From assembly GCA_947561585.1 (NCBI GenBank), contig CANNZV010000503.1:372001-436000 (forward strand): a stretch of 64,000 bases of DNA, read 5' to 3'. How positions within the stretch are numbered: the stretch's first letter is position 1; every line of letters begins with the position of its first letter. The DNA is from Caprella mutica. Lineage: Eukaryota; Arthropoda; Malacostraca; Amphipoda; Caprellidae. The translations under genes were made by a program, and so were the position numbers. The notes beneath the pieces are model-generated. The model did no database searches and had not been told where the DNA came from. It saw only the letters and a list, made by a program, of their open reading frames with translations. This document shows positions 7,795 through 58,400 of the stretch, piece after piece.

Positions 7795-8372
7795 GAGCAA
7801 GTAAATATAACGGACCAAGTAAAGATAACGGACCAGAAAACTTTATTCTAACTTTAGTAATTTTTTTTTATTATTTGAAAGAATTGATAAAAAAACGTAA
7901 TACATTTTGAAGTTGTTAAGCAAGAGTATTAAAAAATGGAAAAAAAAACTTCTGCTTAAATCCTTTACTGTGGTATCTATGATTCCAAAATTTATATTCT
8001 TATTCCAATTATTAGTCAAATATTTAATAATTTAACCTAGTAAAAATAACGGACCAGAATTTAACCTAGTAAAGATAACGGACCAGAATTTAACCTAGTA
8101 AAGATAACGGACCAGAATTTAACCTAGTATAGATAACGGACCAGAATTTAACCTAGTAAAGATAACGGACCAGAATTTAACCTAGTAAAGATAACGGACC
8201 AGAATTGAAGCTAGTAAAGATAACGGACCAGAATTTAACCTAGTAAAGATAACGGACCAGAATTTAACCTAGTATAGATAACAGACCAGAATTTAACCTA
8301 GTAAAGATAACGGACCAGAATTTAACCAAGTAAAGATAACGGACTGTGGTCCGTTATAATCTTTACTTGCTC
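7795..8372. mobile_element. TIR element with internal 29-bp tandem repeats and a 9-bp target duplication
   Basis: Starts GAGCAAGTAAATATAACGG and ends with the inverted CCGTTATAATCTTTACTTGC. About 11 copies of a 29-bp unit (AACCTAGTAAAGATAACGG + ACCAGAATTT) fill 8,030-8,345, and each unit repeats the terminal motif AAGTAAAGATAACGGACCA. AAAATTTCA stands directly before the left end and again after the right end, once one extra C is counted in the element. It interrupts the 44-bp satellite and has no coding capacity. Confidence 0.75.
8030..8345 (+). repeat. 29-bp tandem array inside the TIR element
   Basis: About 11 near-identical units with GATAACGGACCAGAATTTAA. They differ at few bases, so the array looks young. 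Confidence 0.85.
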
Positions 8373-8545
8373 CAAAATTTCATTATAATTAAAAATTAAA
8401 TAACTAACAATACAATAAAAATTTCATTATAATTAGAAATTAAATAACTAACAATACAATAAAAATTTCATTATAATTAGAAATTAAATAACTAACAATA
8501 CAATAAAGATTTCGATATAAATAAAAATTAAATAACTAACAATAC

Positions 8546-10425: not shown

Positions 10426-10429
10426 TTTT

Positions 10430-12098: not shown

Positions 12099-12100
12099 TA

Positions 12101-19240: not shown

Positions 19241-19241
19241 A

Positions 19242-20439: not shown

Positions 20440-21765
20440 TGATTTTTGTCTCATCTGTTTTTACTGCACATATTTTGCTGTTTCACATCTGTGGCTGCCT
20501 CACATCTGTTTTGGTCTCACATATGTTATTGCTTCACATCTGTTGCTGCTTCACATCTGTTGCTACTTCACATCTTCTGCTGCTTCACATCTGTCGCTGC
20601 TTCACATCTGTTGCTGCCTCACTTCTGTTATTGCTTCACATCTGTTATTTCTTCACATCTGTTGCTGCTTCACATTTATTAGGGCTTCACATCTGTCATT
20701 GCCTCACATATGTTATTGTTTAACATCTGTTGCTGTTTCACATCTGTCACTGCTCCACATCTGTTGTGCTTCACATCTGTTATTGCTTCGCATCTGTTTT
20801 TCCTTCACATATGTTATTGCTTCACATCTGCTATTGCTTCACATCTAATATTGCCTCACATCTGTTATTGCTTCACATCTATTATTGTTTCACATCTGTT
20901 ATTTTTTCACATCTGTTATTGCTTCACATTTGTTATTGCTTCACATCTGTTATTGATTTACGTATGTTGCTGCTTCACATCTGCGGCTGCCTCACATCTG
21001 TTTCTGTCTCACATATGTAATTGCTTCACATCTGTTGTTGCTTCACATCTGTTGCTGCTTTACATCTGCTGCTGCTTCACATCTGTCGCTACTTCACATC
21101 TGTTGCTGACTCACATCTGTTATTGCTTCACATCTGTTGCTGCTTCACATTTGTTAGGGCTTCAAAACTGCCATTGCCTCACATATGTTATTGTTTAACA
21201 TTTGTTGCTGTTTCATATTTGTTGCTGCTTCACATCTGTTGCGCTTCACGTATCTGTTATTGCTTCACATCAATTATTGCCTCACATCTGTTATTGCTTC
21301 GCATCTATTTTTTTTCACATCTGCTATTGCTTCACATCTGTTATTGCTTCACATCTATTATTGTTTCATATCTATTATTGCTTCACATCTATTATTGTTT
21401 CACATTTATTATTGTTTTACATCTGTTATTGCTTCACATCTATTATTGTTTCACATCTGTTATTGCTTCACATCTGTTATTGCTTCACATTTATTATTGT
21501 TTCACATCTATTATTGCTTCACATCTATTATTGTTTCACATATATTATTGTTTCACATCTGTTATTGCTTCACATCTATTATTGTTTCACATCTGTTATT
21601 GCTACACATCTGTTAGGCTTCACATCTATTATTGCTTCACATCTGTTATTGCTTCACATCTGTTATTGCTTCACATCTATTATTGTTTCACATCTATTAT
21701 TGTTTCACATCTGTTATTGCTTCACATCTGTTATGCTTCACATCTATTATTGCTTCTTATCTGCT
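20440..21765 (+). repeat. 17-bp minisatellite with higher-order structure
   Basis: About 78 copies of TTCACATCTGTTATTGC and variants. Since the unit lacks stop codons in all three plus-strand frames and 17 is not a multiple of 3, long open frames appear in every frame; these are artefacts. Rare variants recur together (GTGGCTGCCT at 20,491 and GCGGCTGCCT at 20,983; TTAGGGC at 20,679 and 21,154), showing duplication of a block of about 28-29 units. The right half is dominated by CTATTATTG variants. Confidence 0.93.
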
Positions 21766-23372: not shown

Positions 23373-24257
23373 TTTAATTCGTAGTGCTAGGATTTTAATA
23401 GATTAATTTATAATTAGTTTATTATATAATTAATTAATTGGAAATTATGTAGTGTTCCTGTCAGTTACACCATTAACGTAATAAAAAATGCTATAATTAT
23501 AATGTAATAATACCATAAAATTCCATTAAAATTTAATTAGTTTTCTTAGTAAAGTGGTCGATTTATACAAGCGTTATTAATGATTTTGTCACAGACGAAT
23601 ATTTTGATTTTTATCGTTATCTAGCTTCTAATTTTTTTTGTGATTGGTTATCTTAATCATCACAATAGAAATTGAAACATAACCATAGTTGCCCACATAT
23701 AGTGTTTATTAACACATAAAGTATGATGAATGATAACAAAAAAAATTCTGCCACTATTAATATTTTGTGATAATTTGCTTTCGAAATCTGGGAAGAATGT
23801 AAATGTATATAGTAAGTGACATATAATTTCATTTAAAAAATCAACGGAATAATGGAAATATCTGTTTTTGCCAACTCCTTGCCCTCACGCACTTGTACAA
23901 GAAAGGTCCACTTATTCGCATCAAAATCTTATAATTAATAATACATATTATATCTTTGATCAATGCAACAACCGAATTTTGTTTCACATTAAATTTAATT
24001 TACCTATTAACTATGAAGAAAAATGAAACTATTCTTGGTTATTAGAATTAACTAGTTTTCTAGAATGATTTATACAGTATAATGAAATATATGATATATA
24101 CTATATAATAAAACATGTATAAATGTGTAATAAGGTATTATGTATAATTATTAATGTTTTGCATATTACAACTTTTTCATTTCTTTCAACAATAATGTAA
24201 TATTCAATATATTACAAAGTTCTATTTCAAATAGTAAAAGTATATACGATTTTTTAA

Positions 24258-24452
24258 GTTGAAGAATAATTTACTCTGAGAACGTATTTACGTTACTAAT
24301 TACGTATAATTAGTTTGGGATAAATTACTAATAAAGTTTTGTAGCTCATCCTAAATTAGTCTGTGTATCCAATTGCAATAAGTTTTGATCATTGACGGTA
24401 AACCAGTTCACACGTGCAAAAAGGTAATATTGTTTTTATAGCGATGAGTGCA
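24258..24452 (-). promoter_or_regulatory. Conserved noncoding block 3' of gene B
   Basis: Counterpart of 2281-2470 in the same orientation relative to the gene. It includes CCAGTTCACACGTGCAAAAA and ACGTATTTACGTTACTAATT. Confidence 0.4.
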
Positions 24453-24812
24453 AACATCTACAAATATTTTTCAGATATAGTATATCTCAATTGTCAATTT
24501 TTAGAATCTATAAATTACATTTAGCTTGACAATTATATCTAGAAACGAGAAGTGAAAAAGTTGTAAATATATTTACCACTAATAAATGCTTTATATATGA
24601 TTTAATTCTTCCTAATTAATTTTTTTGATAGAGAAAAGAGAAGAATGAAGGATATATGAATATTCAAATTTCCAATGGTATAATTCATTTTAGACGGTCA
24701 TAGAGCAACATCATCTTGCTCAATGGATAAGTTCCTGCTTTGGCTACGAATACATGACTGCTTATTTTGTTTATCAATTCTATTTTTATCCTCATGATAT
24801 ATTCCCTTCACT

Positions 24813-25052
24813 TCAGGGGATTACTGAAAAGACTCTGACTTCAGTTACTTCCAGAAACTTGGTTTCATCAGTGTAGGTTCCTTCCTTAGCAATGGCGAAG
24901 AATCTACCGCACTTGGGTGAAGGTAGGTTGAACTCCAGAAAGTGGTTTCCACCGTTGTTGGGGTCTCCGTACGGGCCTGCGTAGTACTGGATTTGTTCGT
25001 AACCATTTTCTTGGAATTTGCCATTCGAAACTCCAACTGATCCCAGGTAGAA
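24813..25052 (-). CDS. Gene B exon 4
   Basis: 240 nt from a TGTAG acceptor to TGA. Its variable loop reads GPYGDPNNGGNHFLEF, followed by PKCGRFFAIAKEGTY and TEVRVFSVIP. Confidence 0.9.
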   Translation of the reverse strand, partial: FYLGSVGVSNGKFQENGYEQIQYYAGPYGDPNNGGNHFLEFNLPSPKCGRFFAIAKEGTYTDETKFLEVTEVRVFSVIP

Positions 25053-28000
25053 CTACAAGTAGAAAAATCATATAAAATACCATCTTGAACATAAATGTGT
25101 GAAAAGTAATAGTTAGTTAATCATAATTTTAATGGAAAATTATTATTCAATTTGTGCTTTATGATAAAAAAATGAAAATTATAAAATTAAGAATAAAGTT
25201 TCTTTGAAAATCTATGATATATTTGACTCTTCACAATATTAATATAATTATTAAATTAATGACACTTGACATTATTAATCAATGATAATCGCTACAATTG
25301 AAATGAAAGTGAATGAAAACAAATATACTCACTGTAACACCAACAGCTCGAGCATGACCGTCTCTATGATTTATTCTTGGTAGGTACTCAATTTTGTCAA
25401 TCGAGTAGTGCTTTCCCAAATCAATGTCAAGCCAGGGGTTGAAATCAGAGCTTTCCGATTCGAAGAAATGTTTCATGTTACTTTTCACACCATCGGTAGC
25501 TCTGTCGCAAGATCTGTAAGTATAGAAATTAATTAATATATTAATTCCAAAATTGGAAAGATAATATTTTGACTATCCATATCAATGCAAATATCCAACT
25601 TTATCTAATAGTATATATGTATTTGTAAAATAAATCGATTTCAATCAGCTCGAATATCAATATGAAATCATTACAATACAAAAACATCTGATTTATAAAA
25701 AATATTATGTTTAATTATTGTGATATTTCATTTACAATACCAATTATTTACCAATAACAATATTATTGAATAAATATTGTATACTTTATTATATTTAATG
25801 AAAATAAATAAATAGCAGTCAAATTACAGTGTTCGATGTAAAATGTGATATAGGCTTCGTGTATCAAAAACCTGACATATACCATAATTCGAACATAGCC
25901 TATTTGTATTAAAAATATAGTTTGTATATCACATACGACTCATATCAATATTTTACATTCGAAAGAATTTGTGTGCCGAAATTCTGATATTGATGTCAAC
26001 TGAAATCAATATTTATAATTCCTGTGACTATAAGGTGACTGACAATACCCTGCAAACATTTCCACATGTTTACCATGTGGTTAGTCCACATTATAACAAT
26101 GTGGTTACAATGTAAAGATTTTGGAACCTTGGACGATATGTTATACACATGTGGTTTTGTCAAATGTATAATATATATGGAATACTGTGTACGGACAACT
26201 GCCATGCGGACAACTGCCATGCGGATAACTGCCATGCGGACAACTGCCATGCGACAAACTGCCATGCGACAAACTGCCATGCGGACAACTGCCATACAAT
26301 ATGTCATAATTTTGTATTGGGTGAATTGTAATGCACTTTTAAACTTAACCTTGATGTGAAGTATATTATTATCTTAACCTAAAAATTAAGTATAATATTT
26401 ATCGTATAGTCTGAAATTGTGCACAAAGAAGTATAAAAATTAATATTGACAGTAGATTCAGAGATTAAAGTTGAAATATACTAAATTCTTTTTTTTTATC
26501 ATATCTAACCTATTTTGTTCCTTAAACAATCAAATGGTTGACAAGAATTGGACAATCTATAGATGCAAAACTTTCTTTTCAAACATTTCAAAATACAAAG
26601 AATAGTACAAACACAAGCTTTACAGGTTAAAATAATCCAGTAGGTGTGATTTTGCATTTTACTATTTAAGAATTTTCATTGGGTCAATTAATACTTTTTA
26701 TTTCTAAAAACAAACTTTTCTGCTAGATTTAGGATTAGAAACTGAAGTAGTATTTATTTTATTTCTATGTTAAAAAAAAATCTTACCAAGAACATGTCTT
26801 ATAAATATTTGAAAAGTGTAAAAAATGAGAATAATCATAACTGAAATATGTTTTATTAAATACATTATCATACTAATAACAAATCAACATTTTAGTTAAC
26901 TCATATATGTCCAGTGTTGTGTGAAAGCATGCAAAACCACACTCACTGAAAATTTTAACCTGTAAAGCTTATGTTTGTTTTATTCTTTGTATTCTGAAAT
27001 GTTTGTAAAGAAAGAAAGAAAATGGTCATTGACACGTGGTTGTAATATGGTAAATTACACATGGTTAACATCTTTTATTGAAATGGTAATTGACATGTGG
27101 TTGTAATGTGGTAAATTACACATGGTTAACATATGTTATTTAAATCGTAATTGACATGTGGTTTCAATGTGGTAAATTACACATGGTTAATATATTATAT
27201 TTTAGTGTTTAGGTTGTATCAATATGGATGATGCATCCTAAAATTTTTTGTCATATTATAACCTCCCAACCACATGGCATCCATGTGTATGCCATGTGGA
27301 AATGTTTGCAGGGTAGTGGCAATAACTACATTGATATCAATTTACTCACAATATATACTGGGGTAAATTGGGTTGTTCTGACGAGCAAGTTGCTAGTTTG
27401 TTGAGAGCCACATTGAAGTTGCCAATCGGATAGCTTCTTGGTTGCAGGGAGAAAGTTGCTTCTAATGCAGGGAGTCCTCTGTTCAAGCCTGATATCACAC
27501 ATTCATCTGCAAAGATAGATTTATTCCATTGGTAATTGACGAAATATTTCAAAATTTTATTGAAGATTTAAAAATGGGAGCCCAACAATATTTTAAACTT
27601 CACACTAAAATTTGAATGATTATTTTATGTTTATAAAATCAATGCTCTTCCAAAACTTCGCTCTATTTCATTAATAATATAAAAATCTATTCGTTAATTA
27701 TTGGCAAATAGTTTATTCCTCCAATTTATGATTACAGTAAAACTCCTGAGTTATGAAGTTCTTCGTTAGGAAGCACTCGAGTAATGAAATGCACCTCAGT
27801 TATGAAGTGTTTTCTATGTTTGAACTATAGAAAACGATATATCATTTTGTCATAATTATTTTGTCATAAATATTCCTCAAAACCACAGTTTTCTCGGAGA
27901 TTTTAATCATAGAAAACTATCGGTGTCCCTGAGTTATGAAGTGGATCTGAGTTATGAAATAACCAATATTTCATAACTCAGGAGTTTCACTGTGCAATTA

Positions 28001-33267: not shown

Positions 33268-33916
33268 TTACTAGGGTTAAAAAAAACATGCATAGATAAT
33301 TAGATATCTTTGTAAGAAGCTTTTACAGTTTTTTTTTCCGAGCGTACGTGATTTGACCACAACCTAGTAAACTCTGATTCTATATTCTTTAAAATTAATA
33401 TATAATACCTGTGCATAATAACAATGATGTTCACTCTTTGCTTGTAGACTTAGGATAAGATCATAAGGATCACTCATGGATTTACTCTTGTGGATAAAGT
33501 GCCGCCTTGCGGTGTTGCAATATTGCACTGTGCCTATACTTGTACTTTAACTCATTCATTCATTGTACATTGTCGGACAAATTTTGATATGCACTTAGTG
33601 TGGTTTTATTTCCCTCTTCCCGCATAACCTAAAAATCTATAGAACTATAAGACCTAGAACCTCGAATTACTTTAAATTCAAATAAAAACACCCCCTAAAA
33701 AGAATATTATCCTTTTTAACAATTGGCATCTTCGACGGGCTTCGACCACTTTCTAACGGGATATTTAAGATGTAATTTACTATCTTTGGCGTAATTTCAA
33801 GAAAAAAGAAATAGTTGTACCCAAAGAAACAGGAAATAGTTATACCATTTCTTTTTGATATTTAGCTATTCAACATAAGTCAATTACACAGTGATTGCTC
33901 TTGAGCTATCTATATT

Positions 33917-34867
33917 GGTAGCCGGTAAATTGCTTGAAAACAATTGCTCGAAAGACAATTGCTCGAAAACAATTGCTCGAAAAACAATTGCTCGAATGAA
34001 CAATTGCTTGAATGAACAATTGCTCGAATTATCAAATTGCTCGAATGAACAAAATTGCTCGAATTATAAAATTGCACAGTTTTCGATTTTATAAAAGTCA
34101 GTTATTAATGAAGTGGAGCTGCACCTAACAATCCTTGTTTCTTTCTAGTAATTGATCATTAATCATTCTATAAATGATTTTAATTATTACTCATTCTGCA
34201 TAATCTTTTTTTAGACCATTTGTGTCATCTCGTATGTAACATGTGAATTGGAATCATGTGTTGTGAATCACTACTATTCATGTTTTTTTTTTATCAAAAA
34301 ACCCGTAAATATATTTATTATTAGCCTATCTGTATGAGGTACCTCAATAGGTAAAATAACTCAAAGTTAAGGCAGAGTTTCAATAAATCTACCAAAAAAT
34401 TCGGGTTTTATGATAAAAAAACATGAATAGTAGTGATTCACAACATGATTCCAATTCACATGGTACATACGAGATGACACAAATGGTCTAAAAAAAAGAT
34501 TATACAGAATGAGTAATAATTGAAATCATTTATAGAATGATTAATGATCAATTACTAGAAAGAAACAAGGATTGTTAGGTGCAGCTCCACTTCATGAATA
34601 ACTGACTTTTATTAAATCGAAAACTGTGCAATTTTTTAATTCGAGCAATTTTGTTCATTCGAGCAATTTGATAATTCGAGCAATTGTTCATTCGAGCAAT
34701 TGTTCGTTCGAGCAATTGTTCGTTCGAGCAATTGTTTTTCGAGTAATTGTCTTTCGAGCAATAATTGTTCTTTCGAGCAATTGTTCATTCGAGCAATTGT
34801 TTTTCGATCAATTGTTTTCGAGCAATTGTCTTTCGAGCAATTGTTTTCGAGCAATTTACCTAGAACC
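33917..34867. mobile_element. Foldback element with 14-15-bp terminal repeats and a perfect 9-bp target duplication
   Basis: ATCTATATT lies immediately on both sides. Ends GGTAGCCGGTAAATTGCT and, inverted, AGCAATTTACCTAGAACC. Each end holds about nine or ten copies of a 14-15-bp repeat (AACAATTGCTCGAAA), followed by arms of more than 200 bp that are near-perfect inverted copies (from GTTATTAATGAAGTGGAGCT), with a centre of about 110 bp. No ORF of its own; the open frames over the repeats are artefacts. Confidence 0.85.
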
Positions 34868-34876
34868 ATCTATATT

Positions 34877-38186: not shown

Positions 38187-38426
38187 TCATGGGATTACTG
38201 AAAAGACTCTGACTTCAGTTACTTCCAGAAACTTGGTTTCATCGGTGTAGGTTTCTTCCTTAGCGATGGCGAAGAATCTACCGCACTTGGGAGAAGGTAG
38301 GTTGAACTCCAGAAAGTGGTTTCCGCCAATGTTGGGGTCTCCGTACGGGCCTTGGTAGTAATGAATCTGTTCGTAACCATTTTCTTGGAATTTGCCATCC
38401 GAAACTTCAACAGATCCCAGGTAGAA
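38187..38426 (-). CDS. Gene C exon 4
   Basis: 240 nt from a TGTAG acceptor to TGA. Its variable loop reads IHYYQGPYGDPNIGGNHFL; the rest matches B except for EETY in place of EGTY. Confidence 0.9.
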   Translation of the reverse strand, partial: FYLGSVEVSDGKFQENGYEQIHYYQGPYGDPNIGGNHFLEFNLPSPKCGRFFAIAKEETYTDETKFLEVTEVRVFSVIP

Positions 38427-41303
38427 CTACAATGGTAAAAACATCATAAGATATACCAGCTTGAACATAAAATTGGGAAGAGTTAATCATAATTTCAATG
38501 GAAATTATAATTCAAATTGTATTTTTTATTAACAAATGTAAACTATGAAATTAAGAGAGACGTCTATTTGAAAATCTATGATTTTTTTGACCCTTTACAA
38601 TATTAATAATATATCTATTTCCCTTCAACATATTAATAATAAATCTATTTCCTTTCAAAATATTAATAATAAATCTATTTCCCTTCAACATATTAATAAT
38701 AAATCTATTTCTCTTCAGAATATTAATAATAAATCTATTTCCCTTCAAAATATTAATAATAAATATATTTCCCTTCAAAATATTAATAATAAATCTATTT
38801 TCATTCACGTTATCAATAATAAATCTATTTCCCTTCACAATATTAATAATAAATCTTTTTCCCTTCAAAATATTAATAATAAATCTATTTCCATTCACGT
38901 TATCAATAATAAATCTATTTCCCTTCACAATATTAATAATAAATCTATTTCCCTTCACAATATTAATAATAAATCTTTTTCCCTTCAAAATATTAATAAT
39001 AAATCTATTTCCATTCACGTTATCAATAATAAATCTATTTCCCTTCACAATATTAATAATAAATCTATTTCCCTTCACAATATTAATAATAAATCTATTT
39101 TAATTCACGTTATCAATAATATATATTTTTCCCTTCACAATATTAATAATAAATCTTCGTCCCTTCACAACATTAATAATAAATCTATGCCCCTTCACAA
39201 TATTAATAATAAATCTATGCCCCTTCGCAATATTAATCAGTGATAATCACCACAATCAAAATATAAATGAAAATAAACATACTCACTGTAATACCAACAG
39301 CACGAACATGACCATCTCCGTTATCTATTCTTGGTAGGTACCCAATTTTGTCAATCGAGTAGTGCTTTTCCAAATCAATGACCATCCATGGGTTGGCATC
39401 AGACGCTTCCGAATGGTAGAAGTTGTTCAAGTTGGTTGTCTCACCGTCGGTAGCTCTGTCGCAATATCTGTAATTATGATAATTAATTTAATGGTACATT
39501 TTGAATACATTGAAAATTCCCCGATGGAATCTCCAAGGTTATTCTAATCAATGTGGACACTTTACTTGGAGAGATAATATTCTGACGTAACTAATTACCT
39601 TATCTATGCAAATATCCATCCAACCTTATAGATTGTAAAACTGTATTTGTAAAAAAATCGAATTCAATCAGCTCTATGATATCAATATGAAATCATTACA
39701 ATAAAAAAATAACTGACTTTAAAAAATATAATATATCCCTCCCTATAACAAAGGGCCTTGTATCTATATATACAGGGTGACCCACAAAAATTTAACCGTA
39801 CTTTGAATTGATATTACTCGAATGTTACTACACACAATTCAGTTTTGTAAAGTACATTTTATGAAACAACTATTTATCTGCCGATCCTTATAAAAATAAG
39901 TTAAATCTATTTTACGGTATGGATACAGCAACTTTTTTTAGTGTAAGGTACCTGAACAGGCTTAAAAAATAAAGAATCCTAAAATTTTAAAAATCCTGAA
40001 ATTCGAAAATCTCTTAAAAATTATTTAAAAATTTGTTATAGTATAATAGAAACTCTTGATAAACTAAAACCCCAAAAAAATAAAAAAATAAAAACTATAT
40101 AGAAAATGAAAATCATAGTTACTTACTTCTGAAGAAATTCAATTATTCATAAAATTTGCATTCAATCAAAATTCAATTTCCAATTATTTCCCAATAACAA
40201 AATTTTGGAATAAATATTTTAAACTGCATTATATTCAATCGAATATTGAGTAAATAGCATTAAAATTCAGGGTTTTAGGTAAAAAGGTATGAAGGCTTTG
40301 TGTGTCAAGTAATTGACATATTCCTCAATTCTGACATAGCCTATTTGTATTGAAAGAATAGTTTATATATCAAGTACGAATCATATCGGTATTTTACATC
40401 TGAAATAATCTGTGTACTGTCAACTGAAATCAATATTTATCATTAAGAGTTATTGTTCTTTAAAAAAATTGGTAATAAACACAACCCAATTAATATCAAT
40501 TCACTCACAATTTAAAACCGCTGGCACTGGGTTGTTCTGACGAGCAAGTTGCTAGTTTATTTAGAGCCACATTGAAGTTGCCAATCGGATAGCTTCTTGG
40601 TTGCAGGGAGAAAGTTGCTTCTAATGCAGGGAGTCCTTTGTTCAAGCCTGATATCACACAATCATCTGCAAAGATAGTTTTATCATATTAGAAATAGATA
40701 AATATTTCAAATTTCCTATATTTTCCCTTTCAATATAAGAAAGCCCAACAATATTTTAAATTTCACACTAATATTTGATTCAGTTTTTTTTAAAGTCAAT
40801 GCTCTTTCAACACTTCACCTTATTTCATTAATTAATAAAAAAATACTTGTTAAATATTGGCAAATAGTCTATTCCTCCAATTTATGATTATATTAAATAT
40901 CACAATACTAATTTTATAAAAGACGATATATTAACATTATGAAATATTATATAAATTATCAAATCAACGGAAACTTTCAAAAATTACAACAGTTTTATTA
41001 ATACAGAATTCCTTATATGCAGAGTAATAAGATATTGTACTCACTTCCATTTGAAGCCGTGAAAGCGCATTGCTTTCTCAAGCAAATCGAAGCGCATCCA
41101 CTGAATCCTGTATTTGCTGCCATAATTTCAAAATCAGCAAAACAGTTTCCTTTCGAGTTATCCAACATTTCACTACGATAAATTTCTGCACCAATCGGAC
41201 AATCGATCACGGAACACATCCAGTGCTCTGTAAAACCACTTTGAATTGCTGCCAGTGCTAAAATAATCAAGACGTACCATCTTGGGAGTTTGAGGTTTAC
41301 CAT
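38187..41303 (-). CDS. Lectin-like gene C: 278-aa secreted PAN-like + F5/8C/F-type-lectin-like protein
   Basis: Exons 41303-41045, 40665-40509, 39467-39287 and 38426-38187, with sizes and phases identical to gene B, so 278 aa. Signal peptide (MVNLKLPRW, hydrophobic LIILALAAI), a seven-Cys N-terminal module with the same Cys positions as B, then the F5/8C-like domain. Gene C comes closest to the F-type-lectin fucose motif (H-x26-RxD-x4-R/K): a His at 157, then R185-I-D187 and R194, that is H-x27-RxD-x6-R. A, B and D have Asn at the Asp position. Glycan binding is inferred from the fold. The exons are all open. Intron 3 (38427-39286) holds a 30-bp minisatellite; introns 1 and 2 lack the elements found in gene B and show the older empty state. 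Confidence 0.9.
38590..39240 (+). repeat. 30-bp minisatellite in gene C intron 3
   Basis: About 21 units of AATATTAATAATAAATCTAT + TTCCCTTCAC. A variant with CGTTATCAATAAT recurs at 38,808, 38,898, 39,018 and 39,108, giving blocks of 90-120 bp. The period is a multiple of three without stops, so long frames on both strands are artefacts. Single related units stand in the same intron of A, B and D. Confidence 0.92.
39287..39467 (-). CDS. Gene C exon 3
   Basis: 181 nt from a TACAG acceptor to a GTGAGT donor. It encodes CDRATDGETTNLNNFYHSE, NPWMVIDLEKHYSI and the loop PRIDNGDGHVRAVGIT, the only copy with RxD. Confidence 0.9.
39772..39835 (+). repeat. Possible transposon end, TACAGGGTGACCCAC
   Basis: Begins TACAGGGTGACCCACAAAAA in intron 2 of gene C. 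A related sequence begins at 51,911 (TACAGGATTTCCCCCAAAAA). I cannot find the other end in either case. Confidence 0.3.
40509..40665 (-). CDS. Gene C exon 2
   Basis: 157 nt from a GCAG acceptor to a GTGAGT donor. It encodes DCVISGLNKGLPALEATF, NVALNKLATC and the variable tail EQPSASGFK. Confidence 0.9.
41045..41303 (-). CDS. Gene C exon 1 (signal peptide and Cys-rich module)
   Basis: 259 nt from ATG to a GTGAGT donor. It differs from B mainly in the signal peptide and in the IMAANTGFSGC segment. The block EHWMCSVIDCPIGAEIYRSE is unchanged. Confidence 0.9.
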
Positions 41304-41560
41304 TGTTAAATATACGAGAATATTTAATTGATGTAAAGCTTCGCAAAAACCAATAAATATTTAAATTTGAGAAGTATTAATGTATCATTCGATTATTCTG
41401 TAAATCTAATCCGTTGATGTTAATATCCTGCATCCATGCATCCTTGGTCAAAACAGAATCTTTATCAACTTTACACAAGTGAGTTCTTGCCATGTTATAC
41501 CTATACCATAAACTCCATTGGAACTGTGGACACATCTCTATTCAGTCAATCCATTATTTG

Positions 41561-45905: not shown

Positions 45906-46220
45906 ACAAACATAGTATACATATTTCAAATATATTATCTTAATTGGTAAATTATGAAATCAATAAATTACACTTAGCTTGATGATTATATATAGAAACA
46001 AGAAGTGAAAGAGTTGCAAATATTTTAACACAAATAGAAACTGTTTATATGATTTAATTCTTATTAATTTAATTATTTGATTGAGACAAGAGAGCAACAT
46101 CTTGCTCAATGTTCTTGTGTTTCAATTGATACGTTTCACTTCTGGCTACGAATAGAATTAGATATTTGTTCCTTTTGTCTATCAATTCAATCATTACACT
46201 CATGGTGTATTCCTTACACT

Positions 46221-46460
46221 TCAGGGGATTACTGAATAGACTCTGACTTCAGTTACTTCCAGAGTTTGGTTTCCTGCAATGTAGGTTCCTTCCTTAGCGA
46301 TGGCGAAGAATCTACCGCACTTGGGTGAAGTTAGGTTGAACTCCAAAAAGTGGTTTCCACCGATGTTGGGGTCTCCGTACGGTCCTTCGTAGAACCCAAT
46401 TTGTTCGTAACCATTTTCTTTGAATTTGCCATCCGAAACTTCAACAGATCCCAGGTAGAA
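46221..46460 (-). CDS. Gene D exon 4
   Basis: 240 nt from a TGTAG acceptor to TGA with no internal stop. Variable parts are IGFYEGPYGDPNIGGNHFL and GTYIAGNQTLEVTEVR. On its own it could be a solitary duplicated exon, but its phase and its place 3' of exon 3 fit gene D. Confidence 0.87.
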   Translation of the reverse strand, partial: FYLGSVEVSDGKFKENGYEQIGFYEGPYGDPNIGGNHFLEFNLTSPKCGRFFAIAKEGTYIAGNQTLEVTEVRVYSVIP

Positions 46461-49400
46461 CTACAATGGTAAAAAAATCATGAGATATATCTGCTTGAAC
46501 ATAAATTTTGAAAGGGTGTAAGTTAGTCAATCAAAATCAAAACAACCCTTAATATTTTTTTAACTGGTTAGTATTTATGCGCTAGTGCACCAATCAGTAC
46601 GAAATTTACTTACTTATCATGAATACTGGAGGTCGATAAAAATTTGAAAAAAAAAATCCAAAATTATTTTGATATTCACCTTGAAATCCCAGCGGCTTAT
46701 TTTAACCCGCTCTTGTAAAATTTAATGTAACGTAAATTTGTAGCTCCCAGATTTAGATCATGAGTTTACAAGTCTAAACAGGAAAGCACAATACTAGTGT
46801 GATAATAGTTGAGCTCTTGCAGACTAATTTCAGTACTGCCTTAACAACAAAACCAGTAAACAAGTTACTAAGAACGCTCATAAATGAAAAAAATAATATA
46901 TTTATTATTATGACGCATTTAGGGTATGGTTACTATGGATGCGTATTCAACCGATTTTTCACACTGACGACTATTGATGAAATCGAATAAATATCAAACT
47001 CATACTCTCCAATAGGAGTGGTTACAATGGCAGCGATTTTATCGTCAGAATACGTACGAAGTCATCAGAACAACTTCAGCTTTCAAATGAGTTTGATTTT
47101 TTCATGCGACTAGCGACAGATTTGGTAATTTTTGTGTTTTAGGGTACGGTTACTAAGGACGCGTATTCTAGCGATTTTTCGCACAGACGATATCGCAAGA
47201 ACTGATCGTCAGTGCGAGGTGGTTACACTGTACGCGATTTCTTATCGTCAGTATGTTTTTGCCCAATTGATATTGGGATCTAAACTATGTTCATTTGAGG
47301 TAATGTTCGGGAGGAATTAAACACCTACCTGTGTGCCTCTGAAATAATGGACGCGAGGCTAATTTGATTATCATTTTCACTACACACAAACTTTTGAAAT
47401 ACCTAAATCAAAAATAAGGAGAATATTTTTTTTATATGTATAACTATTCAAAGATATTCAATTTCATTGAAAAAAAAATTGTACACAGTAACAATCAATT
47501 CAAGCCTTTATATAAACAAATATATATTATAAATAATTAAATAATATCTTTATTATTCATGTTATATATATATATTTTTAAATGCCCCCTGCCAGAAGAA
47601 GCAATGTATGTCCTGATATGTATCTAATAATATATTTCCAAAACGCAAGGGTAAACAGTAATAGCAATCGAAAGTAAGAGAATTAAACACAAAAAATACA
47701 GTCGCATGAAAAAATCAAACTCATTTGTACGCTGAGCTGCTGTAACCACTGTCATTGGAAAGCATGAATTTGATTTTCATCCGATTTCATCAGAAGTCGT
47801 CAGTGCGAAAAATCGCTTGAATACGCATCCATAGTAACCGTACCCTTGAGGTTACTATGGATGCGTATTCAAGCGATTTTTTGCACTGACGATATCGTCA
47901 GAACTTATCGTCAGTGTGAGGTGGTTACACTGTACGTGATTTCTGATCGTCAGTATGTTTCTGCTCAATTACAATTTGGGTCTAAACTATGTTTATTTGA
48001 TATAATGTTTGGAAAGAATTAAAAACCTACCTGTGTGCCTCTGAAATAATAGACGCGACGGTAATATGATTATTGTCTTCACTGCACAAAGTTTTTGATA
48101 TACCTAAATAGGAAAATAATGAGAATATTTTTTAAAAAACTATTCATGAATATTCAATTTTATTGAAAAAAATGTACAAAGTAACAACCAATCCAAGCCT
48201 TTATATAAACAAATATATATTATAAATAAATAAATAATATCTCCTTTATTTTTCTAGAGCTTTCGAGTTATAAAATATTCATTTTCAATAACCTAATTCA
48301 GATTAATTTTAACGAAATATATAGAAATAAGAAGTATTTTGTATACCAAAAATGATAAATTCACCTAATTAGTTAATAAAAATTAAAATAAGGAAATGAA
48401 TAAAAGTAAAAATAATAAGTTATTAATCGAAAATAGTTAAATTCAAAGAACTCGCTTGTTCATTAGGCGTAGGAGACTGTTTATGAAAGTATATAGTGAC
48501 TATATACTATATAGAATCTAATGTACGAATATCACACTGGTTAGTAGTTTGCAAAATTTTAAAATTTTCTTCCTTATTTAATTGGGTGATTAAAATCAAA
48601 AGAATGGTTACGAATTGAACAGAAGGGTGGGGAGCTATAGGGGTTATTAGTTCTAAAAGATATTCCCTTATGCTGAGAAATTTTCACCTTTTGCATCATA
48701 GACTGGCACTGTCCACACGAGTATTTATAAATGAGACCAGATGACAGTAAAGGTGGGATTTTATCTTTAAAAGGAAAAAATGAACCAATAGTGGTTGGTA
48801 ATGAATTAAGGTATGTTTTACATTTAATGCTTGAATCACCCAAATAAAGAAGGGATACGAAAATTTCAAATTTAGGAACTGTTAATTTACGTTCAAGTGG
48901 AGTATTAACAAACTTTAAATATTTAGAGACAAATTTGTCAAATAAGTTACGCAACCAGAGAAAAAGTTACGCAAGTGTGATAATTCGGCATCAAAATCTA
49001 CATAATTCGAGCAAATCTCATATACGCTCTATGAACAAGACAAGTAATCAAATTAACTTTGTAAGATGTCGGTATGAAAGAATCAAATGTTAACCCCAAT
49101 CGTCTGAATATCTTTTTACGATAAACTCTAGTAGAGAATTTATTATTAATACGATTAATGGCAACATCTAAAAATTTAGGGAGTTATTTTTCTCAATTTC
49201 CTAAGTGAATTTAATATTAGAATGTTTAGAGTTTAAATAATTAAGTAAAAGATTAATATGAGATTGGTCAGAAAATAGTAGGAAAATATCATCTACATAT
49301 ATATAATAACATTTATGTTTAAATTCAATTGGGCAATCATCTAACCATCGTTGTTCATGAAAACATAAAAATACATTCGCAAGAGTGGGACTAAGAGGAT

Positions 49401-52400
49401 TTCCCATACCTACACCATCAAATTGGGAAAATAACTTACCATTGAAAAGGAAGAGGACATTCTTAACAGCGAGCTCAAGCAACTGCTTGAAGAAACAGGA
49501 AGACAAGTCGTAAGACAAAAAAGGAAACAGGACGACAAAACAGGAAGTCGTTTCCCTTGTGCTGCACTTCATACATTTAGTAAGATTTCCCAGAAGGAGA
49601 CCAATTAGTCAAATTATAAATAATATCTGTATTATTCCTGATAATACCTAATAATATATTTCCAAAACGCAACGCATGGGGGTATTGGCTATATAGTAAA
49701 AGCAATCGAAAGTAAGAGAATCAAATACAAAAATGACTGAATCTGTCGCTATAGTATAGTCGCATGAAAAAATTAAACAGTTTGAACGCTAAAGTTGTTC
49801 AGACGACTTCGTACGTATTCTTACGATCAAATCGCTGCCACTGTAAACACTCCTATTGGAAAGTATGAATTTGATTTTCATCAGAAGTCGTTAGCACAAA
49901 AAATCGCTTGAATACGCATCCATAGCAACCATACCCTAATTCTCTTACTTTCGATTGCTATTACTGTTTAGCCATGCGTTTTGGAAATATATTATTTGAC
50001 ACTATCAGGAATAATACAGATCCTTTTAAATAATACATAATATATATAGTTGTTGTTAATTGGCTGTTAATGTGTACAATTATTTTCCAATTGAATTTAA
50101 TATCCCTATAGTTATATATAAAGTATTCTCCTATTTTTCTATTTAGATTATTCAAAAATTTTGTGCAGTGAAAATAATAATTAAATTAGCGTCGCGTCTA
50201 TTTTATCAGAGGCACATAGGTAGGTGTTTAATTCCACCCGAAACAAATATTCTAGCAATGGTTCCATATATCACTCTAAACAGTAAATTTAGCTCTGGTC
50301 AAAAGTTAAGGGTAGCCATCATAAACTTTGAAATATTCCTGGACATTGGCGATTTAACTTAATACTTTGTGAATAATTCATAATAATAATTCTAAATGAA
50401 ACTGAAGAATGGTAGACTTCCCTAAGCAACGCTGAGAGAAGATCATGAAAGTCTTCAAAGAAGCTTGCACGATAGTTTCAACACTTCTGGTCAAATTTCT
50501 CATGAAATAGTGTCATGTCTGGTGGTACTGTGTCCTGGTCTACTTTTCGCTTCTACTTCAGCAAGTTGGAGTGCGATCATTCGTTCCTGCATCGAAGCTT
50601 TCAATCTCTTAAAAGAACCGAAAAGTGCTACTTGTGTTTTGTTAAGGGAATTTCGTTTGGTCGATTAATCAGTGGTCGAAAGTACATTCTAGTGATGAAT
50701 GAAAGAAAACTAAATATCTTAAGTTCTAATGGGAAAGTACCAATGAAACTTAGAATAGGGGAAAGCTTAACTCTGAACTGCGTCAAGAAGACAGATAAGT
50801 TTTGAGGTGGTATAGTGTGATGGTTTGGGGATCATTTTTTCTCCTGTACCTGGTCTTCTTTTTCTCCTGCACGGAGGAGTTATTGCAAAAGTATAAAATA
50901 GCTCCTTTGGAAACATACTCACCCCTATCCACATTCAACAGCTGACCTTCAACCACCGAATTTCATGCAGGACAACGTACTCTGCTACTCAGATAAAAAA
51001 TTAGGACCCTATTTGAAAGTGAAGAAATTGCTCAAATGAACTGGCCTTCACAGAGCCCTGACCTCAATCAAATTTAGATTACTTGGATAATAATGAAGAC
51101 TGTACTCAAAAAAGAAACACAACAAATGTGGCAGAATTATGGGCATATCTGGAAGATGAATAGAAGATGAATAACTCCTTCATATTGTGCAAAATTAGTA
51201 TAATTTTTTGGTAGAAGATGTATTAAAGTGATATAGGAAAGATCTATTCACAAAATATTAAGTTATTTGCCAATATCCGGGAATATTTCAAAGTTTATGA
51301 TGTCTACCCTTATCTTTTGACCAGAGCAGAATTTATTGTTTGAGAAGAAATATTGAACTATTGATAGAATATTTGTCCAAACACTTTGAAATTTCATAGG
51401 AACAAATATGAGCTTTATATGGCAATCCATGCAAAATTTCAATAAATAGTGTTCTGTACTTTGTATGAAATTATAGATTTAAATAACTCAATCTTGCCTA
51501 CCCTTTTATCTTGGTCACTATTGTAGTTTAAACCCAGATTTTTTTTTCATTCACTTTTTTTGACTCAAATGACATATATTTTTTACATTCTTTTTTTTTT
51601 AGATTTACTTACTTATTTTTGTCTACATACATTCTTTTAACAAATTTTTTCAACATAATTTTTTCCACATCATTTTTCAATTTAATTTTAAATATATTTA
51701 TTCTTATTTCATATTAATTTTTTCTTTTGACCCAATAATTTTAATGGGAAATACACTAGTTTGGAATATATTGTAGTCAGTATGGTTATATGAGGTTGTT
51801 TTTACATCGTTATATACTACAAGTAATAACGATGATATTCGGATGATATTTGGCTTTAATATTCAGGTTTGGTTAAGTAGTTGCATTTTAAAATTTGATG
51901 TACTTACAATACAGGATTTCCCCCAAAAAACTTAACCCAACTTTAAATTTGTATATTTCAACAACTACTTAAGATAAAATTTTCTTTCAAGTATTATTAT
52001 CCATTTTAATTTTTCTATAGAAATTTATTCAATGTTGTGAATGCTATACTGATTTTATTAATTGGTGGTGAGAATGGCTTCGCGCAAATGGTTAGAAAAC
52101 AATGAATTAAGTTCAAACATAAACTATATCTTCATTAGACAACTATTATCCCCCTTATTAAAATAGATATATTTTCAGGTTTTAAATTTTCAGGTTCCTT
52201 TTACAGATTATTTACAATATGAAGTATAATTAAGGCATACAAAACATTTTTTAAATAACATACGCGGTCCACAGAGGAAGTACGATTTTGCGGTCCACCT
52301 AGTGTTAATGGATCTTATAATTTAATTCGTGTTTTCTGATTTAAAAAATGTGAATTATGAAAATAGGATTAAAGTCAACTAGACACTCAATGATATTTTT

Positions 52401-55400
52401 CACCCTTCACAATATTAATTGATTATTAAAATTAATGGATTATTTGGAAATAATATTATATATAAAAATGATAATAATTGGAAAGCTAAGAATGAAGTCA
52501 ATTTGAAAATCTATAATTTTCTATAATAATATATCTAGGTCCCTTCACCATAATAATAATAAATATATGTCCCTCCGCAATATTAATCAATGATAATCAC
52601 CAAAATCAAAATATAAATGAAAACAAACATACTCACAGTAATACCAACAGCTCGAAAATGACCGACTTTATTATTTATTCTTGGTAGGTGTTCAAATTTG
52701 TGAACCGAGTAGTGCTTTTCCAAATCAATGACCAACCAGGGGTTGCCATCAGACCAATGCGAATGGGTGAAGTGTTTCGAGTTGGTTGTCTCACCGTCGG
52801 TAGCTACGTCGCAAGAACTGTAATTAAGGTAATTTAATGGTGCATTTTGAATATATTGAAAAATCCTCAGAATTTTCACTTTTCATATCTATGCAACTAT
52901 CCATCTCTTTCAATAGTATGACTGCATTTGTAAAAAAAATCGGATTCTATCAAGTCGGATATGATTATAAAATCATTATAATACAAAAAGGGACCAATTT
53001 TTTAAACATAACATATTCTTTGATATTTCACGTAACACTAAATGTATCCCAATAACAATAATATTGATTGGAACTTTACTATTTTATTATAATTAATGGT
53101 ATTTTTAAAGTAAATAGTATCCAAATTCTGGTGTTCGGTGTAAAAGAAAAAAGTTTTTGCGTGTGGGACATATTTGATCATTCTGGTAATTTTTTTAAAT
53201 AGTTTGTGTATCAAATCTATATTTTATATCCAAAAGAATTAGAGTGTTGAAATTCTGATATTGTTGCAAGCTGAAATCAATTATTATCCTTTTACATTCA
53301 CTTGTATTAGGCTCATGCCTTTATTTCTCATATTATTTATATGACTATAATAAGAGTAAGTGTTTTAAAAAAGAGGTGCTAACTACGTTGATAATTTACT
53401 CACAATATTAAACCTAGAACAGGGGTCATTTCTGACGAACAGGTTGCTGGTTTCTTGAGAGCCACATTGAAGTTGCCAATCGGATAGCTTCTTGGTTGCA
53501 TGGTGAAGATTTCTACCGGTGCAGTGAGTCCTTTGTTCAAGCCTGATATCACACATCCATCTGCAAAGATAGTTTATAATAATAATAATAATTTCATTCA
53601 GAAACAGTTGTACAAAATTTTATTTCGGTTACAAAATAATTTGTTGAATTAATTTCTTTTTTATTACATTGGGAATAGATATAATCACCCTTCACCTTAC
53701 GTACAAATACACAGTGTGTCTTTGTCTGTTGGTTGATTGCAGCAAAAATATCACGCTTTAACATTTTATATGTATAAAAAAAATTGACATAATATTCTGA
53801 CACATATTTTTCGGACTCAAATTATCATTGACACCATTTTTTTACATAATTTTTGTACATATTTTTTTAGATAATTTTTACTTATATTTTTTTTAATTTT
53901 TTAGATAATTTTTCGTCTAACATAATTTTCTTTCTTAATATTAATTTTTTTTAATAATGAGTTTGGCAAATGTTTTTTAAGAATATCTTTTATTAAATTT
54001 ACCGGCCTTTTTTGACTTTGTTCATACATAAATACCAAATATATTTTAGTATTTAAAAGTTTAAAAATGGTACACGGAAAACTGCCAGGCGGAAGACTGC
54101 CAGGCGGAAAACTGCCGAAGCAGAAAACTGCCAGGTGGAAAACTGCCAGGCGGAAAGCTGCCAGTCATTTACTGGCAATATAAAGACTTGAGTCAATAAT
54201 AACATTTTAATTTATGAAAATGTTGTTCGCCCAACGTTAAGGAGTTAAGGAACATTAATTTTTACTTAGTATACAAAACAAAAATAATAGTTAAATGTAG
54301 ACAATTTATTTGAAAAATATTTAAATATATAAATATTAAAGATATAAATGAAATATTATGTAGAAATTAAAAACTAAAGTCTTTCTTAGAAAAGGTTTAA
54401 AATACTAATAGAAGAAACAAAGAAATTTTAGTATTAGGGACAGAGTACAATTTCTTTGTTTACACAACGCATCTTTAAATTATCAGTTCATAACGCGCTA
54501 ACTGTCTAATTTTTTTGCTTATAATTTGAGAATTGAACAAGCCTTCAAGCTTAATATTCGCTTGTACTCATTATAAAACAACTTCGATATATGTTTGTGA
54601 AATATTTAGAATTTGCAACACAACATCTATGATTATTAAACTGCTATTACCTACCAATAGTACCTAAATCTCTGACAATTTCACTCGATCGAATTAGATT
54701 GTTCATTAATTAATAATACTTGTTACATATACATAAAGGAATATTGTAAAAATGAAGGAGTTGTGCTATTGACATGAAGGATAAAAATGTAAATATAATA
54801 AATATTGAACATACATATAATGTTGATTTAACATACATTTAATTTATTGTATAATTTAAGATTAATTAATTATGAGAAAAAATTCCCATTAAGTGACTGG
54901 CAGTTTTCCGCCTGGCAGTTTTCCGCCTGGCAGTTTTCCGCCTGGCAGTTTTCCACTTCGGCAGATTTCCGCCTGGCAGTTTTAAGCCTGGCAGTTTTCC
55001 GGACACCCTAAAAATATTTACGTATTGGCGTAAAACAGCGTAAATCACGTAAAATAGGAAACTAATTGTACTGTTGTGAAGTGTAGCAACGTAGAAATAC
55101 AATTTGGTTACCATATAAGCCAAATCTGTTCGTTTTCATGGAGTACAGACACATGCGCGAGCTGTGATTGGGTCAAACTCTACCCAATCACAGATCTGTT
55201 CTCTCAGTTGCCAATGTTTTATATGATGTCTGGAAAACTTCCAGGCGGAAAACTGCCGAAGCAGAAAACTGCCATGCAGAAAACTGTCAGTCACTTAATG
55301 GGAATTTATGTATTTTTTACTTTCATTATTTATTTATAAACAACATTCAAAGAACATTTTAATTAAAAAAATGGCGTCAGCCCTTCGTTAAGGGGTTAAG

Positions 55401-58400
55401 GGGATATTCATTTTTACAGTAATAACAATATAGATATTGGATTACTTAATATCCAAATGAAAACTATATTTCAACAAAGCTATCTCATTAAACACACAGT
55501 AAACAAAACTTCAGTACACATAAGGAAGTAACAATTACCATTTTATACTTATTTGCTATGTCACGTACATTTTAAAAAACATGTTTTAAGTTACGTATAT
55601 AGTCCCTTGTTTATAGTTCCTATATTAATGTCAGCAATATAACCTTTGGTTCAAAAGCAAACGTTAAACCCTGCGTACTGATTTGTTATTAATAACTAAT
55701 CAGATATTCTCATAATTAATTAATCTTAAATTATACAACAATTTGAGTGTATGTATGTTAAATCAACATATGTATATGTATGTTCAATATTTATTATATT
55801 TACATTTTTATTCTACATGTCAATAGCACAATTCCTTCATTTTTAAAATATTCATTTATATGTAACAAGTATTATTAATTAATGTACAATCCAATTCGAT
55901 CGAGCGAAATTGTCAGAGATTTAGGTACTATTGGTAGGTAATAGAAGTTTAATAATCATAGATGTTGTGTTGCAAATTCTAAATACTTCACAAACATAGA
56001 TCGAAGTTGTTTTATTATGAGTACAACCGAATATTAAGCTTGAAGGCTTGTTCAATTCTCAAATTATAGAAAAATAATAATTAGACATTTAGCGCGTTAT
56101 GAACTGATAATTTAAAGATGCGTTGTGTAAACAAAGAAATTGTACTCTGTCCTAAATACTAATATTTCTTTGTTTCTTTTCTTAGTATTTTAAACCTTTT
56201 CTAAGAAAGATTTTAGTTTTTAATTTCTATATAATATTTCATTTATATCTTTAATATTTATATATTTACATATTTTTCTAATAAATTGTCTACATTTAAC
56301 TATTATTTTTGTTTTGTATACTAAGTAAAAATGTATGTTCTTTAACTGTTTAACGTTGGGTTAACTCCTTAACAAGATTTTATTAATTAAAATGTACGTT
56401 ATTATTGACTAAAGTCTTTAAATTGCCAGTAATTGACTGGCAGCTTTCCGCCTGGCAGTTTTCCGCTTCGGCAGTTTTCCACCTGGCAGTCCTCCGACTG
56501 GCAGTTTTCCGTGTACCGTTTTATATACCTATGTATTTATTTCTCGTTATATGTTCAATATTTTTACTTGAAAATTAGTAGCTACACATTAGTTTACATA
56601 GTATGCATACTAACAACTTGTGATTTATAAATAAGACATGTCTTATTTAACACATATCCAAAAAAGTCCCCTTCATTCTGATAGTCAAACTCACTAGGGT
56701 TAAAACAAGTTCAGCTTAGATTCTCTACGAAGGGTTGCTGTGGCATTCTGTTAGACGGTATTTGAGTAATTGGAACTATGGGCAAGTGTTTTTCAAGGTG
56801 GATATGAAAAACCCTTTCATCTGTCTGTGGAGAGACTCCTTCTTAACTGTTATTCGTAACCGTGTGTGTGTCGGAGCTACATAGACTCCTATGACAAGCT
56901 TATCCATTGCATTCAGCTTTGTTTTTTTTTTGGTGGAGACTATAATGCTACAAATAAAATTATCACTACAAAAAAACTTCAATGCTATACTACCAAACTT
57001 ACAATCACCAAAATGAAAACAAATTGTACATGAAAATGTGATAAACAAATATATAATTACAATTAAAAGGACAAATGATCGTTAGAAGTATCTACCTCTA
57101 ATCTAACCTCTCCGAATCTAAATTCTACATAATATAATCTACACTTCAGAGTTAATCCATTTTCTGATTTCACGCTTAAACTTCCCACTATTATGCACAG
57201 TTTTAATATAGTTAGGTAAAGCATTCCAGATCTTTACTGAATTGTAAAAAAATTGATTTTGTGACACAGTTTAAGGAATTTGTTGCAAATTCAAATTATC
57301 GTTGATTCTAGATCTTGTCCGGTAACAATATGTGTTGGAGCCAAATTTGATATTTTGTGATGAAAATGAACAGAAAATAGAGATGAAACGGAGTATTTGT
57401 GAAAATGGTGAAGGATATTATATCTATAATGGTTAAGTAGTAATAGAGGTGTTTTTTATCTGTAGGCAAATTATTCAAAATGGATTGGGCTCTGATTAAA
57501 ATTCTTTTTAACTTATTTATGTTAATTACCCGGCATCCTCCCGATACAATAATACCATACATTAAAACTGATTGGAAAAGAGAAAAATACATTATTTTTA
57601 ATACTGCTGGTGGTACAATAGTTTTCATTTTCTTTAAAAGTCCTACTACATAAGAAAGTTTTCTACATAAAATATTGATATGTTCATCAAAATTGAGCCT
57701 ATTATCTATTTGCAGTCCCAAAATTTTTATATTTGTTAGCTGATTAACTAAATCATTCCCTATAGAAACACTAATTAAATTTCATTGAACACGAGCATGT
57801 GTGAATAAAATGAAAGAGGTTTTTTCAACGTTCAACGACAGCCTATTAGCTTTCATCCACTAATCTACCTTAGATAGCTCCAAAATAATATCCCTACAGA
57901 GATCATCCAAGTAGTTACCTGACATAAATACAGTAGTATCATCAGCAAAATGAATAAAGGAAAGCCTATCAGAACAATTATGCATATCGTTTACATACAA
58001 GGAGAATAAATACGGAGAGCTAACTGATCCCTGAGGCAGTCCTATGTTCATATTCTTAATAGAAGAAGTATTACCCAATTTATATCAACATAATTTCACG
58101 GTCAGTCAGGTAATCTTAAAACTAGCTCAAAATACTACCACGGAATCCCAACCACTCTAACTTTCTAACCATTATCTGCTTGTTCACAATGTCAACTGTC
58201 AATGCCTTGAATAAGTCCAAAAACACTGCGATAGTATGAGCCTTTTTATCAAGATTATCTGAGCACCTATCTGTGAACTCTAATATCGCATCTAATGTAC
58301 TAAAGCCCGTTCTAAATCCATAATGTTTATCGTAAATTATTTTTTTACAATCTAGATATTCAGTAACTCTACATTTCATAATTTTTTCAATTATCTTGGA

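What the first reader, a model, noticed from the sequence alone, without database searches (positions are those of the whole stretch)
7795..56517. A class of elements with tandem-repeat ends and 9-bp target duplications
At least four elements (7,795-8,372; 26,047-27,314; 33,917-34,867; 55,225-56,517) and probably a fifth (54,069-55,006) share: no coding, inverted ends or caps, short tandem repeats within or at the ends, and 9-bp flank duplications (AAAATTTCA, ACTGACAAT-like, ATCTATATT, GTTTTATAT). Drosophila foldback elements and Mutator-like elements both make 9-bp duplications, and foldback ends carry short tandem repeats. The sequences differ completely among subfamilies, so one transposase system may mobilise several repeat types.
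Basis: partly seen in the sequence, partly recalled or inferred. Interest (0 to 1): 0.8.

Follow-up and report, generated by a model that had tools for sequence, protein, structure and literature searches.

The report
Foldback transposons with tandem-repeat ends
Three of the five DNA pieces are allied mobile elements that carry no genes and consist largely of repeat-packed ends, a fourth is probably a separate element of similar design, and the fifth is of another type; they look like new members of a transposon kind already described from nematodes and mosquitoes.

Summary
Partly right. E3 (33917-34867) and E4 (55225-56517) have perfect 9-bp flank duplications at boundaries set by their inverted ends. 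E1 (7795-8373) has 9 of 9, or 8 of 8 if its ends are lined up exactly. E5 (54069-55007) is a shorter copy of E4 in the opposite orientation, with 7 of 8. E2 (26047-27314) does not belong: its flanks match only 7 of 9, and empty paralogous sites in the window favour a short, TA-type boundary. I add E6 (60659-61055): 8-bp duplication, two empty paralogous sites, no tandem units.

The subfamilies are not all unrelated. E3 and E4/E5 share a terminal design: a 7-bp cap that differs between the two ends, GG, then arrays of about 15-bp units with a conserved core and looser spacers. This is the order published for Tm1 of root-knot nematodes and, more loosely, Muta1/Muta5 of Aedes, Phantom-type Mutator elements. 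Best reading: non-autonomous Phantom-like foldback Mutator elements whose arrays are transposase-binding sites. No transposase was found in the window, and the host genome could not be searched (16 of 16 requests unanswered). E1 has other ends and is placed only tentatively. New member of a known kind; modest interest.

The parts
7795..8373 (.). E1: element with 22-26-bp inverted ends and a one-sided 29-bp array (8029-8344), inserted in a 44-bp minisatellite; tentatively MULE-like
7786..7794 (.). E1 left duplication AAAATTTCA
8374..8382 (.). E1 right duplication AAAATTTCA
26048..27313 (.). E2: element with CCCTGCAAACATTTCC ends, better read as TA-flanked; not of the 9-bp class
26186..26300 (+). 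Orphan array in E2: seven 15-bp units like those of E4/E5, cap-like start
33917..34867 (.). E3: foldback element, caps GGTAGCC / GGTTCTA, then GGT, arrays 33928-34075 and 34639-34856
33908..33916 (.). E3 left duplication ATCTATATT
34868..34876 (.). E3 right duplication ATCTATATT
54069..55007 (+). E5: shorter copy of the E4 family, caps GGTACAC / GGTGTCC, then GGA; flanks TTAAAAAT (54061-54068) and CTAAAAAT (55008-55015)
55225..56517 (-). E4: caps GATGTCT / GGTACAC, then GGA; opposite orientation to E5
55216..55224 (.). E4 left duplication GTTTTATAT
56518..56526 (.). E4 right duplication GTTTTATAT
60659..61055 (.). E6 (not in the finding): ends TGTAAATTCG.../GGTAAATTCC..., 8-bp duplication GATTTTTG (60651-60658, 61056-61063), no tandem units

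Best explanation
E3, E4 and E5 are non-autonomous foldback elements of the Mutator superfamily, Phantom-like and built like Tm1. Each end has three modules: a 7-bp cap that differs between the two ends of one element, a GG(A/T) box, and a head-to-tail array of units with a conserved core and looser spacers. Shown here: the duplications, the caps, the arrays, the likeness of E3 ends to E4/E5 ends, and that E4 and E5 are two copies of one family. Inferred: a MULE transposase encoded elsewhere binds the repeated cores, brings the two ends together, cuts at the caps and makes a 9-bp staggered target cut; array length can change without loss of function because each unit is a spare binding site. 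E1 is probably a second MULE-like (or Rehavkus-like) family on the same principle, with the array on one side only.
For: Perfect 9-bp duplications at E3 and E4 against a chance rate of 8e-5 to 1.4e-3. Of 21 inverted-repeat structures scanned by one rule, 4 have an exact duplication of 8 or more: E1, E3, E4 and E6; E5 and three AT-rich structures off the list have one-mismatch matches. E3 ends agree with E4 right, E5 left and E5 right at 12-14 of the first 20 nt without gaps (with E4 left: 10-11); GGT....GG[AT]AAA.T occurs at 5 places on both strands and all 5 are ends of E3, E4 or E5. The cap at E4's right end equals that at E5's left end (GGTACAC), as their opposite orientation requires; the other two caps agree at 5 of 7. 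Core spacing starts 14,15,14,15,16 at both ends of E3, and is 15,15,16,15,15(15) in E5, 15,15,16,15 and 15,16,15 in E4. In E3 the core AATTGCTCGAA is 91-100% conserved over 23 units, all other positions 48-83%. Tm1: asymmetric 7-bp motifs, then GGA, then 13-15-bp repeats; 8-10-bp duplications, most often 9, in 45 of 53 elements; FLYWCH-MULE transposase (PMC3169594, passages and section 5). Muta1/Muta5: 10- and 8-bp terminal motifs, 9 copies of 12- or 15-bp repeats, 8-9-bp duplications; Muta1 transposes in yeast (PMC5225508, passages).
Against: No MULE transposase found in the window and no genome-wide search possible, so the superfamily rests on anatomy and duplication length. Merlin also makes 8-9-bp duplications (recalled), and foldback form arose in the P superfamily too (Galileo). 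Three copies from two families only. The cap pattern was written after seeing the ends; in 40 simulated windows it occurred 0.45 times on average but 5 times in one. Units were picked by a core with at most one mismatch, which favours a conserved core, although no unit seems lost (23 against 22.6 copies by TRF). E5's duplication is imperfect.
Confidence: 0.77

Rival explanations
1. The elements belong to another superfamily with 8-9-bp duplications (Merlin, hAT or P) and reached the foldback form independently, as Galileo did in the P superfamily.
For: E6 has an exact 8-bp duplication, so at least one 8-bp system was active here; foldback form is known outside Mutator (PMC3688188 passages; PMC4079207 passages). 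E1 and E5 also allow 8 bp.
Against: Two perfect 9-bp duplications outside any repeat array, and the order cap-GGA-array as in Tm1. E6 lacks cap and array.
Confidence: 0.13
2. One transposase mobilises all five elements.
For: E3 and E4/E5 share terminal design; arrays repeat the terminal motif in E1, E3, E4 and E5.
Against: E2 has unlike ends and a TA-type boundary. E1 ends match E3/E4/E5 ends at only 5-10 of 20 nt and have no asymmetric cap.
Confidence: 0.08
3. The arrays are ordinary minisatellites and the flank matches are chance.
For: The window is AT-rich and full of tandem arrays (72 TRF rows).
Against: Exact 9-mers at fixed boundaries have a chance rate of 8e-5; arrays form inverted pairs bounded by caps, in matching register at both ends; E4 and E5 are two copies of one family at two sites.
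Confidence: 0.02

Closest known systems
Tm1 (Mutator/foldback, Phantom type) of Meloidogyne, PMC3169594
   Same: Asymmetric 7-bp terminal motifs, then GGA, then 13-15-bp tandem units; mostly 9-bp duplications; many MITE-like copies
   Different: Cap and unit sequences differ; no unit follows a purine-rich motif D here; no transposase copy seen
Muta1 and Muta5 (Phantom group) of Aedes aegypti, PMC5225508
   Same: 8-10-bp terminal motif, then 12-15-bp subterminal units (9 copies), 8-9-bp duplications, many non-autonomous derivatives
   Different: Muta1's terminal motif is called an imperfect palindrome; the passages read do not mention different caps at the two ends; sequences not compared
Tetris foldback element of Drosophila virilis, PMC4079207
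   Same: Foldback form, tandem repeats in the inverted ends, 8-10-bp duplications
   Different: Units of about 220 bp, inside a long flanking domain
Galileo (P-superfamily foldback), PMC3688188
   Same: Long repetitive ends whose tandem repeats carry further transposase binding sites, the mechanism proposed here
   Different: P-type transposase; 7-bp duplications (recalled)
Rehavkus MULEs, PMC6446971
   Same: 9-bp duplications, ends of 26-400 bp, a minisatellite in the element: possible relatives of E1
   Different: E1 has no coding part, so not testable here

Membership tests
Mutator superfamily (MULE) | 8-11-bp target duplication (9 typical) | tested here: met
   E3, E4 9/9; E1 8/8 or 9/9; E5 7/8
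Mutator superfamily (MULE) | MULE DDE transposase in autonomous copies | tested here: inconclusive
   None among 124 ORFs of the window; genome search unanswered (16 of 16 requests)
Tm1-like foldback MULE | Asymmetric 7-bp terminal motifs outside the inverted repeat | tested here: met
   E3 GGTAGCC/GGTTCTA, E4 GATGTCT/GGTACAC, E5 GGTACAC/GGTGTCC; not in E1
Tm1-like foldback MULE | 3-bp GGA box inside the caps | tested here: met
   GGA in E4 and E5; GGT in E3
Tm1-like foldback MULE | Arrays of units of about 14 bp in both ends | tested here: met
   Spacing 14-19 (E3), 15-16 (E4/E5)
Tm1-like foldback MULE | Purine-rich motif D (GGGAAAAGGGGA), then one more unit | tested here: inconclusive
   Best match 10 of 12 in E4, inward of the array (3 places in the window reach 10), 7 of 12 in E3 and E5. 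So: works like Tm1, not filed as Tm1 itself
Phantom MULE group | FLYWCH zinc finger plus MULE transposase | not testable with these tools
   No coding copy held; the genome search did not complete
9-bp class, for E2 | 9-bp target duplication | tested here: not met
   7 of 9 matches; empty-site curve falls from about 2 bases on
9-bp class, for E6 | Cap and tandem array | tested here: not met
   8-bp duplication present, but no cap and no array

The most novel reading that the evidence does not exclude
One transposase lineage in this host serves several families that keep a common outer signature (GGTnnnnGG[A/T]AAAnTGC) while the tandem binding units diverge family by family, so that the arrays are co-evolving, replaceable address tags; the orphan E4/E5-type end inside E2 would be such a tag picked up by an unrelated element.
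Probability: 0.2. Interest if true: 0.55.

Novelty: new member of a known kind. Interest (0 to 1): 0.32.

Why it matters
It adds an unnamed, animal-like genome to those with the composite-end design of Tm1 and Muta elements, and offers two families with like outer ends but different units in one 64-kb stretch: a natural test of whether array units are transposase-binding sites under selection and how they change. It also undoes a lumping: E2 and E6 belong to other systems.

Tried and rejected
Rejected: E2 as a 9-bp element. Rejected: E4 plus E5 as one composite insertion; E4 has its own perfect duplication and the outer flanks (TTTAAAAAT, GTTTTATAT) do not match. Rejected: 'unrelated subfamilies' for E3 and E4/E5. 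No usable empty site for E3, E4 or E5 in the window. The E6 duplication length by total score alone was undecided (k=1 391.2, k=8 388.6); the step after 8 bases on both sides and the exact 8-bp match favour 8. Led nowhere: exact patterns from three arrays in viral contigs, 0 of 3 scans with a hit; a literature search asking for all of five terms, 0 papers. Not run: protein homologue search, structure prediction, identification of the host. The host reads as an animal from F5/8-type C exons and low GC; that was not tested.

Full report
WHAT IS THERE. The window is AT-rich (29% GC) and holds 72 tandem-repeat rows, paralogous segments, F5/8-type C exons and reverse-transcriptase pieces. It reads as an animal gene cluster with many old transposons; the host was not identified.

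BOUNDARIES AND DUPLICATIONS. Reading the five candidates and scanning boundaries within 15 bases gave 9 of 9 for E1 (AAAATTTCA), E3 (ATCTATATT) and E4 (GTTTTATAT). E5 gives TTAAAAAT/CTAAAAAT, 7 of 8. E2 gives 7 of 9 at its inverted ends. Random pairs in this window share an exact 9-mer at fixed boundaries in 8e-5 of 200,000 draws, and in 1.4e-3 if both ends may slide by 2. E1 sits in a 44-bp minisatellite, so it needs another test: removing the element plus 9 flank bases restores the register (32 of 44), 10 bases give 29, the other 14 lengths from 0 to 15 give 16-26. That fixes element plus duplication at 588 bp. If the two ends must line up with each other, the duplication is 8 of 8, or 9 of 10, rather than 9. 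Both suit a MULE.

CONTROL. The same rule (boundaries within 25 bases, at least 9 of 15 terminal matches) was applied to 21 inverted-repeat structures of the window, the five candidates included. One-mismatch matches appeared in E5 and in three AT-rich structures off the list (32102-32304, 37854-38117, 62920-63215), and for E1 as the 9-of-10 alternative. E2 had none.

EMPTY SITES. E2 and E6 lie in paralogous segments whose other copies lack the element: three copies for E2, two for E6. For E6 the fit of the joined flanks stays level when up to 8 bases are trimmed from either side and drops at 9, which supports the 8-bp duplication GATTTTTG; by total score alone k=1 is slightly better. For E2 the fit falls from about 2 bases on, on both sides, with a small plateau at 8-11 on the left. 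In the alignments two paralogues carry AGTG-like sequence upstream of the insertion point, which may be why the E2 flanks look alike. TA|CCCTGCAAACATTTCC...GGAAATGTTTGCAGGG|TA is the better boundary. The paralogues are diverged and, by eye, have no TA at that point, so this is favoured, not proved.

ANATOMY OF E3, E4, E5. E4 and E5 are one family: 821 of 905 aligned positions identical (91%), E5 lacking an internal stretch, in opposite orientation with 217 bp between them. Each end runs cap (7 bp), GGA or GGT, then units. Caps differ between the two ends of one element: GGTAGCC/GGTTCTA (E3), GATGTCT/GGTACAC (E4), GGTACAC/GGTGTCC (E5). Corrected for orientation, E4 and E5 carry the same cap at one end (7 of 7) and like caps at the other (5 of 7). 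The first core starts at nt 14 in both E3 ends and, for the shorter core used there, at nt 12 in all four E4/E5 ends. Spacing starts 14,15,14,15,16 at both E3 ends; it is 15,15,16,15,15 and 15,15,16,15,15,15 in E5, 15,16,15 and 15,15,16,15 in E4. In E3 the core AATTGCTCGAA is 91-100% conserved over 23 units and every other position 48-83%; in E4/E5 GGAAAACTGCC is 82-100% over 22 units and the rest 55-91%. Units were picked by a short core with at most one mismatch, which favours this contrast, but their number matches the TRF copy count (22.6 and 21.2).

KINSHIP. E3 ends agree with E4 right, E5 left and E5 right at 12-14 of 20 terminal nt without gaps, and with E4 left at 10-11. Of 127,960 20-mers on both strands, 8 reach 14 identities with E3 left, the element ends included. 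The pattern GGT....GG[AT]AAA.T has five places, all element ends; it was chosen after seeing them, and in 40 simulated windows its mean was 0.45 but its largest count 5. E1, E2 and E6 ends match those of E3/E4/E5 at only 3-10 of 20. E6 right (GGTAAATTCC...) resembles E3 just inside its cap, 11 of 16, which I leave as a curiosity.

E1. Its 29-bp array repeats its own terminal motif (AGTAAAGATAACGGACC) in one orientation, with an inverted copy at the right end. The principle, many copies of the end motif, is the same, but the ends are unlike and the array is one-sided.

MECHANISM. Shown: insertion (E2, E6 by empty sites; E1, E3, E4 by duplications), modular ends, conserved core with looser spacer. 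Inferred: the cores are transposase-binding sites. By analogy: in Galileo the tandem repeats carry further binding sites, while for Foldback and Phantom that was called untested (PMC3688188, passages). Muta1 with such ends moves in yeast and leaves 8-9-bp duplications (PMC5225508, passages).

COMPARISON. Tm1 has asymmetric 7-bp motifs, GGA, 13-15-bp units, and 8-10-bp duplications in 45 of 53 elements with both motifs, and a FLYWCH-MULE transposase (PMC3169594, passages and section 5). Its motif D is not clearly present here: best 10 of 12 in E4, 7 of 12 in E3 and E5. Tetris has 8-10-bp duplications and 220-bp units (PMC4079207, passages). A survey lists Phantom with 8-10-bp duplications and ends of 18-613 bp or none, and Rehavkus with 9 bp and a minisatellite (PMC6446971, passages). 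Ten of twelve long-ended Aedes MULE families have 9-15-bp subterminal repeats. So the kind is known and these are new members. The literature searches were made; none was aimed at this host, which is unknown, so I make no claim that these families are unpublished.

LIMITS. 124 of 140 ORFs of 60 aa or more were scanned against Pfam; 16 in or near four tandem-repeat stretches, E1's among them, were dropped. The genome search did not answer in 16 of 16 requests, so copy number, duplication statistics and the autonomous partner stay open.

Noticed in passing
window 26186-26300: Inside E2 lies one orphan array of seven 15-bp units (CGGACAACTGCCATG) like the E4/E5 unit (CGGAAAACTGCCAGG, 13 of 15), with a cap-like start; its inverted form GGCAGTTGTCCG is absent from the window.
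   Followed up: partly
window about 24100-28450, 37500-41400, 46100-46500, 52500-53600, 59300-59700 and, inverted, 300-3640: Paralogous copies of a gene cluster with F5/8-type C exons and a short secreted cysteine-rich exon; they act as built-in empty sites for insertions.
   Followed up: partly
window 30639-31219: Foldback with ends AGGTCCTCTCC and TTAA on both sides: probably a TTAA-type element.
   Followed up: no
window 29497-30248: ORFs that look to me like a Tc1/mariner-type transposase remnant (label from memory); the Pfam scan of ORFs listed no transposase family at 0.01.
   Followed up: no
window 20452-21756: 17-bp array, about 77 copies, CATCTGTTATTGCTTCA, with several long open frames made by the repeat.
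   Followed up: no
window 48577-49608 and 57311-58607: Broken ORFs of at least two retroelements; two of the four pieces match Pfam RVT_1.
   Followed up: no
window 45645, minus strand: A lone GGAAAACTGCC site like the E4/E5 core, outside the elements described.
   Followed up: no
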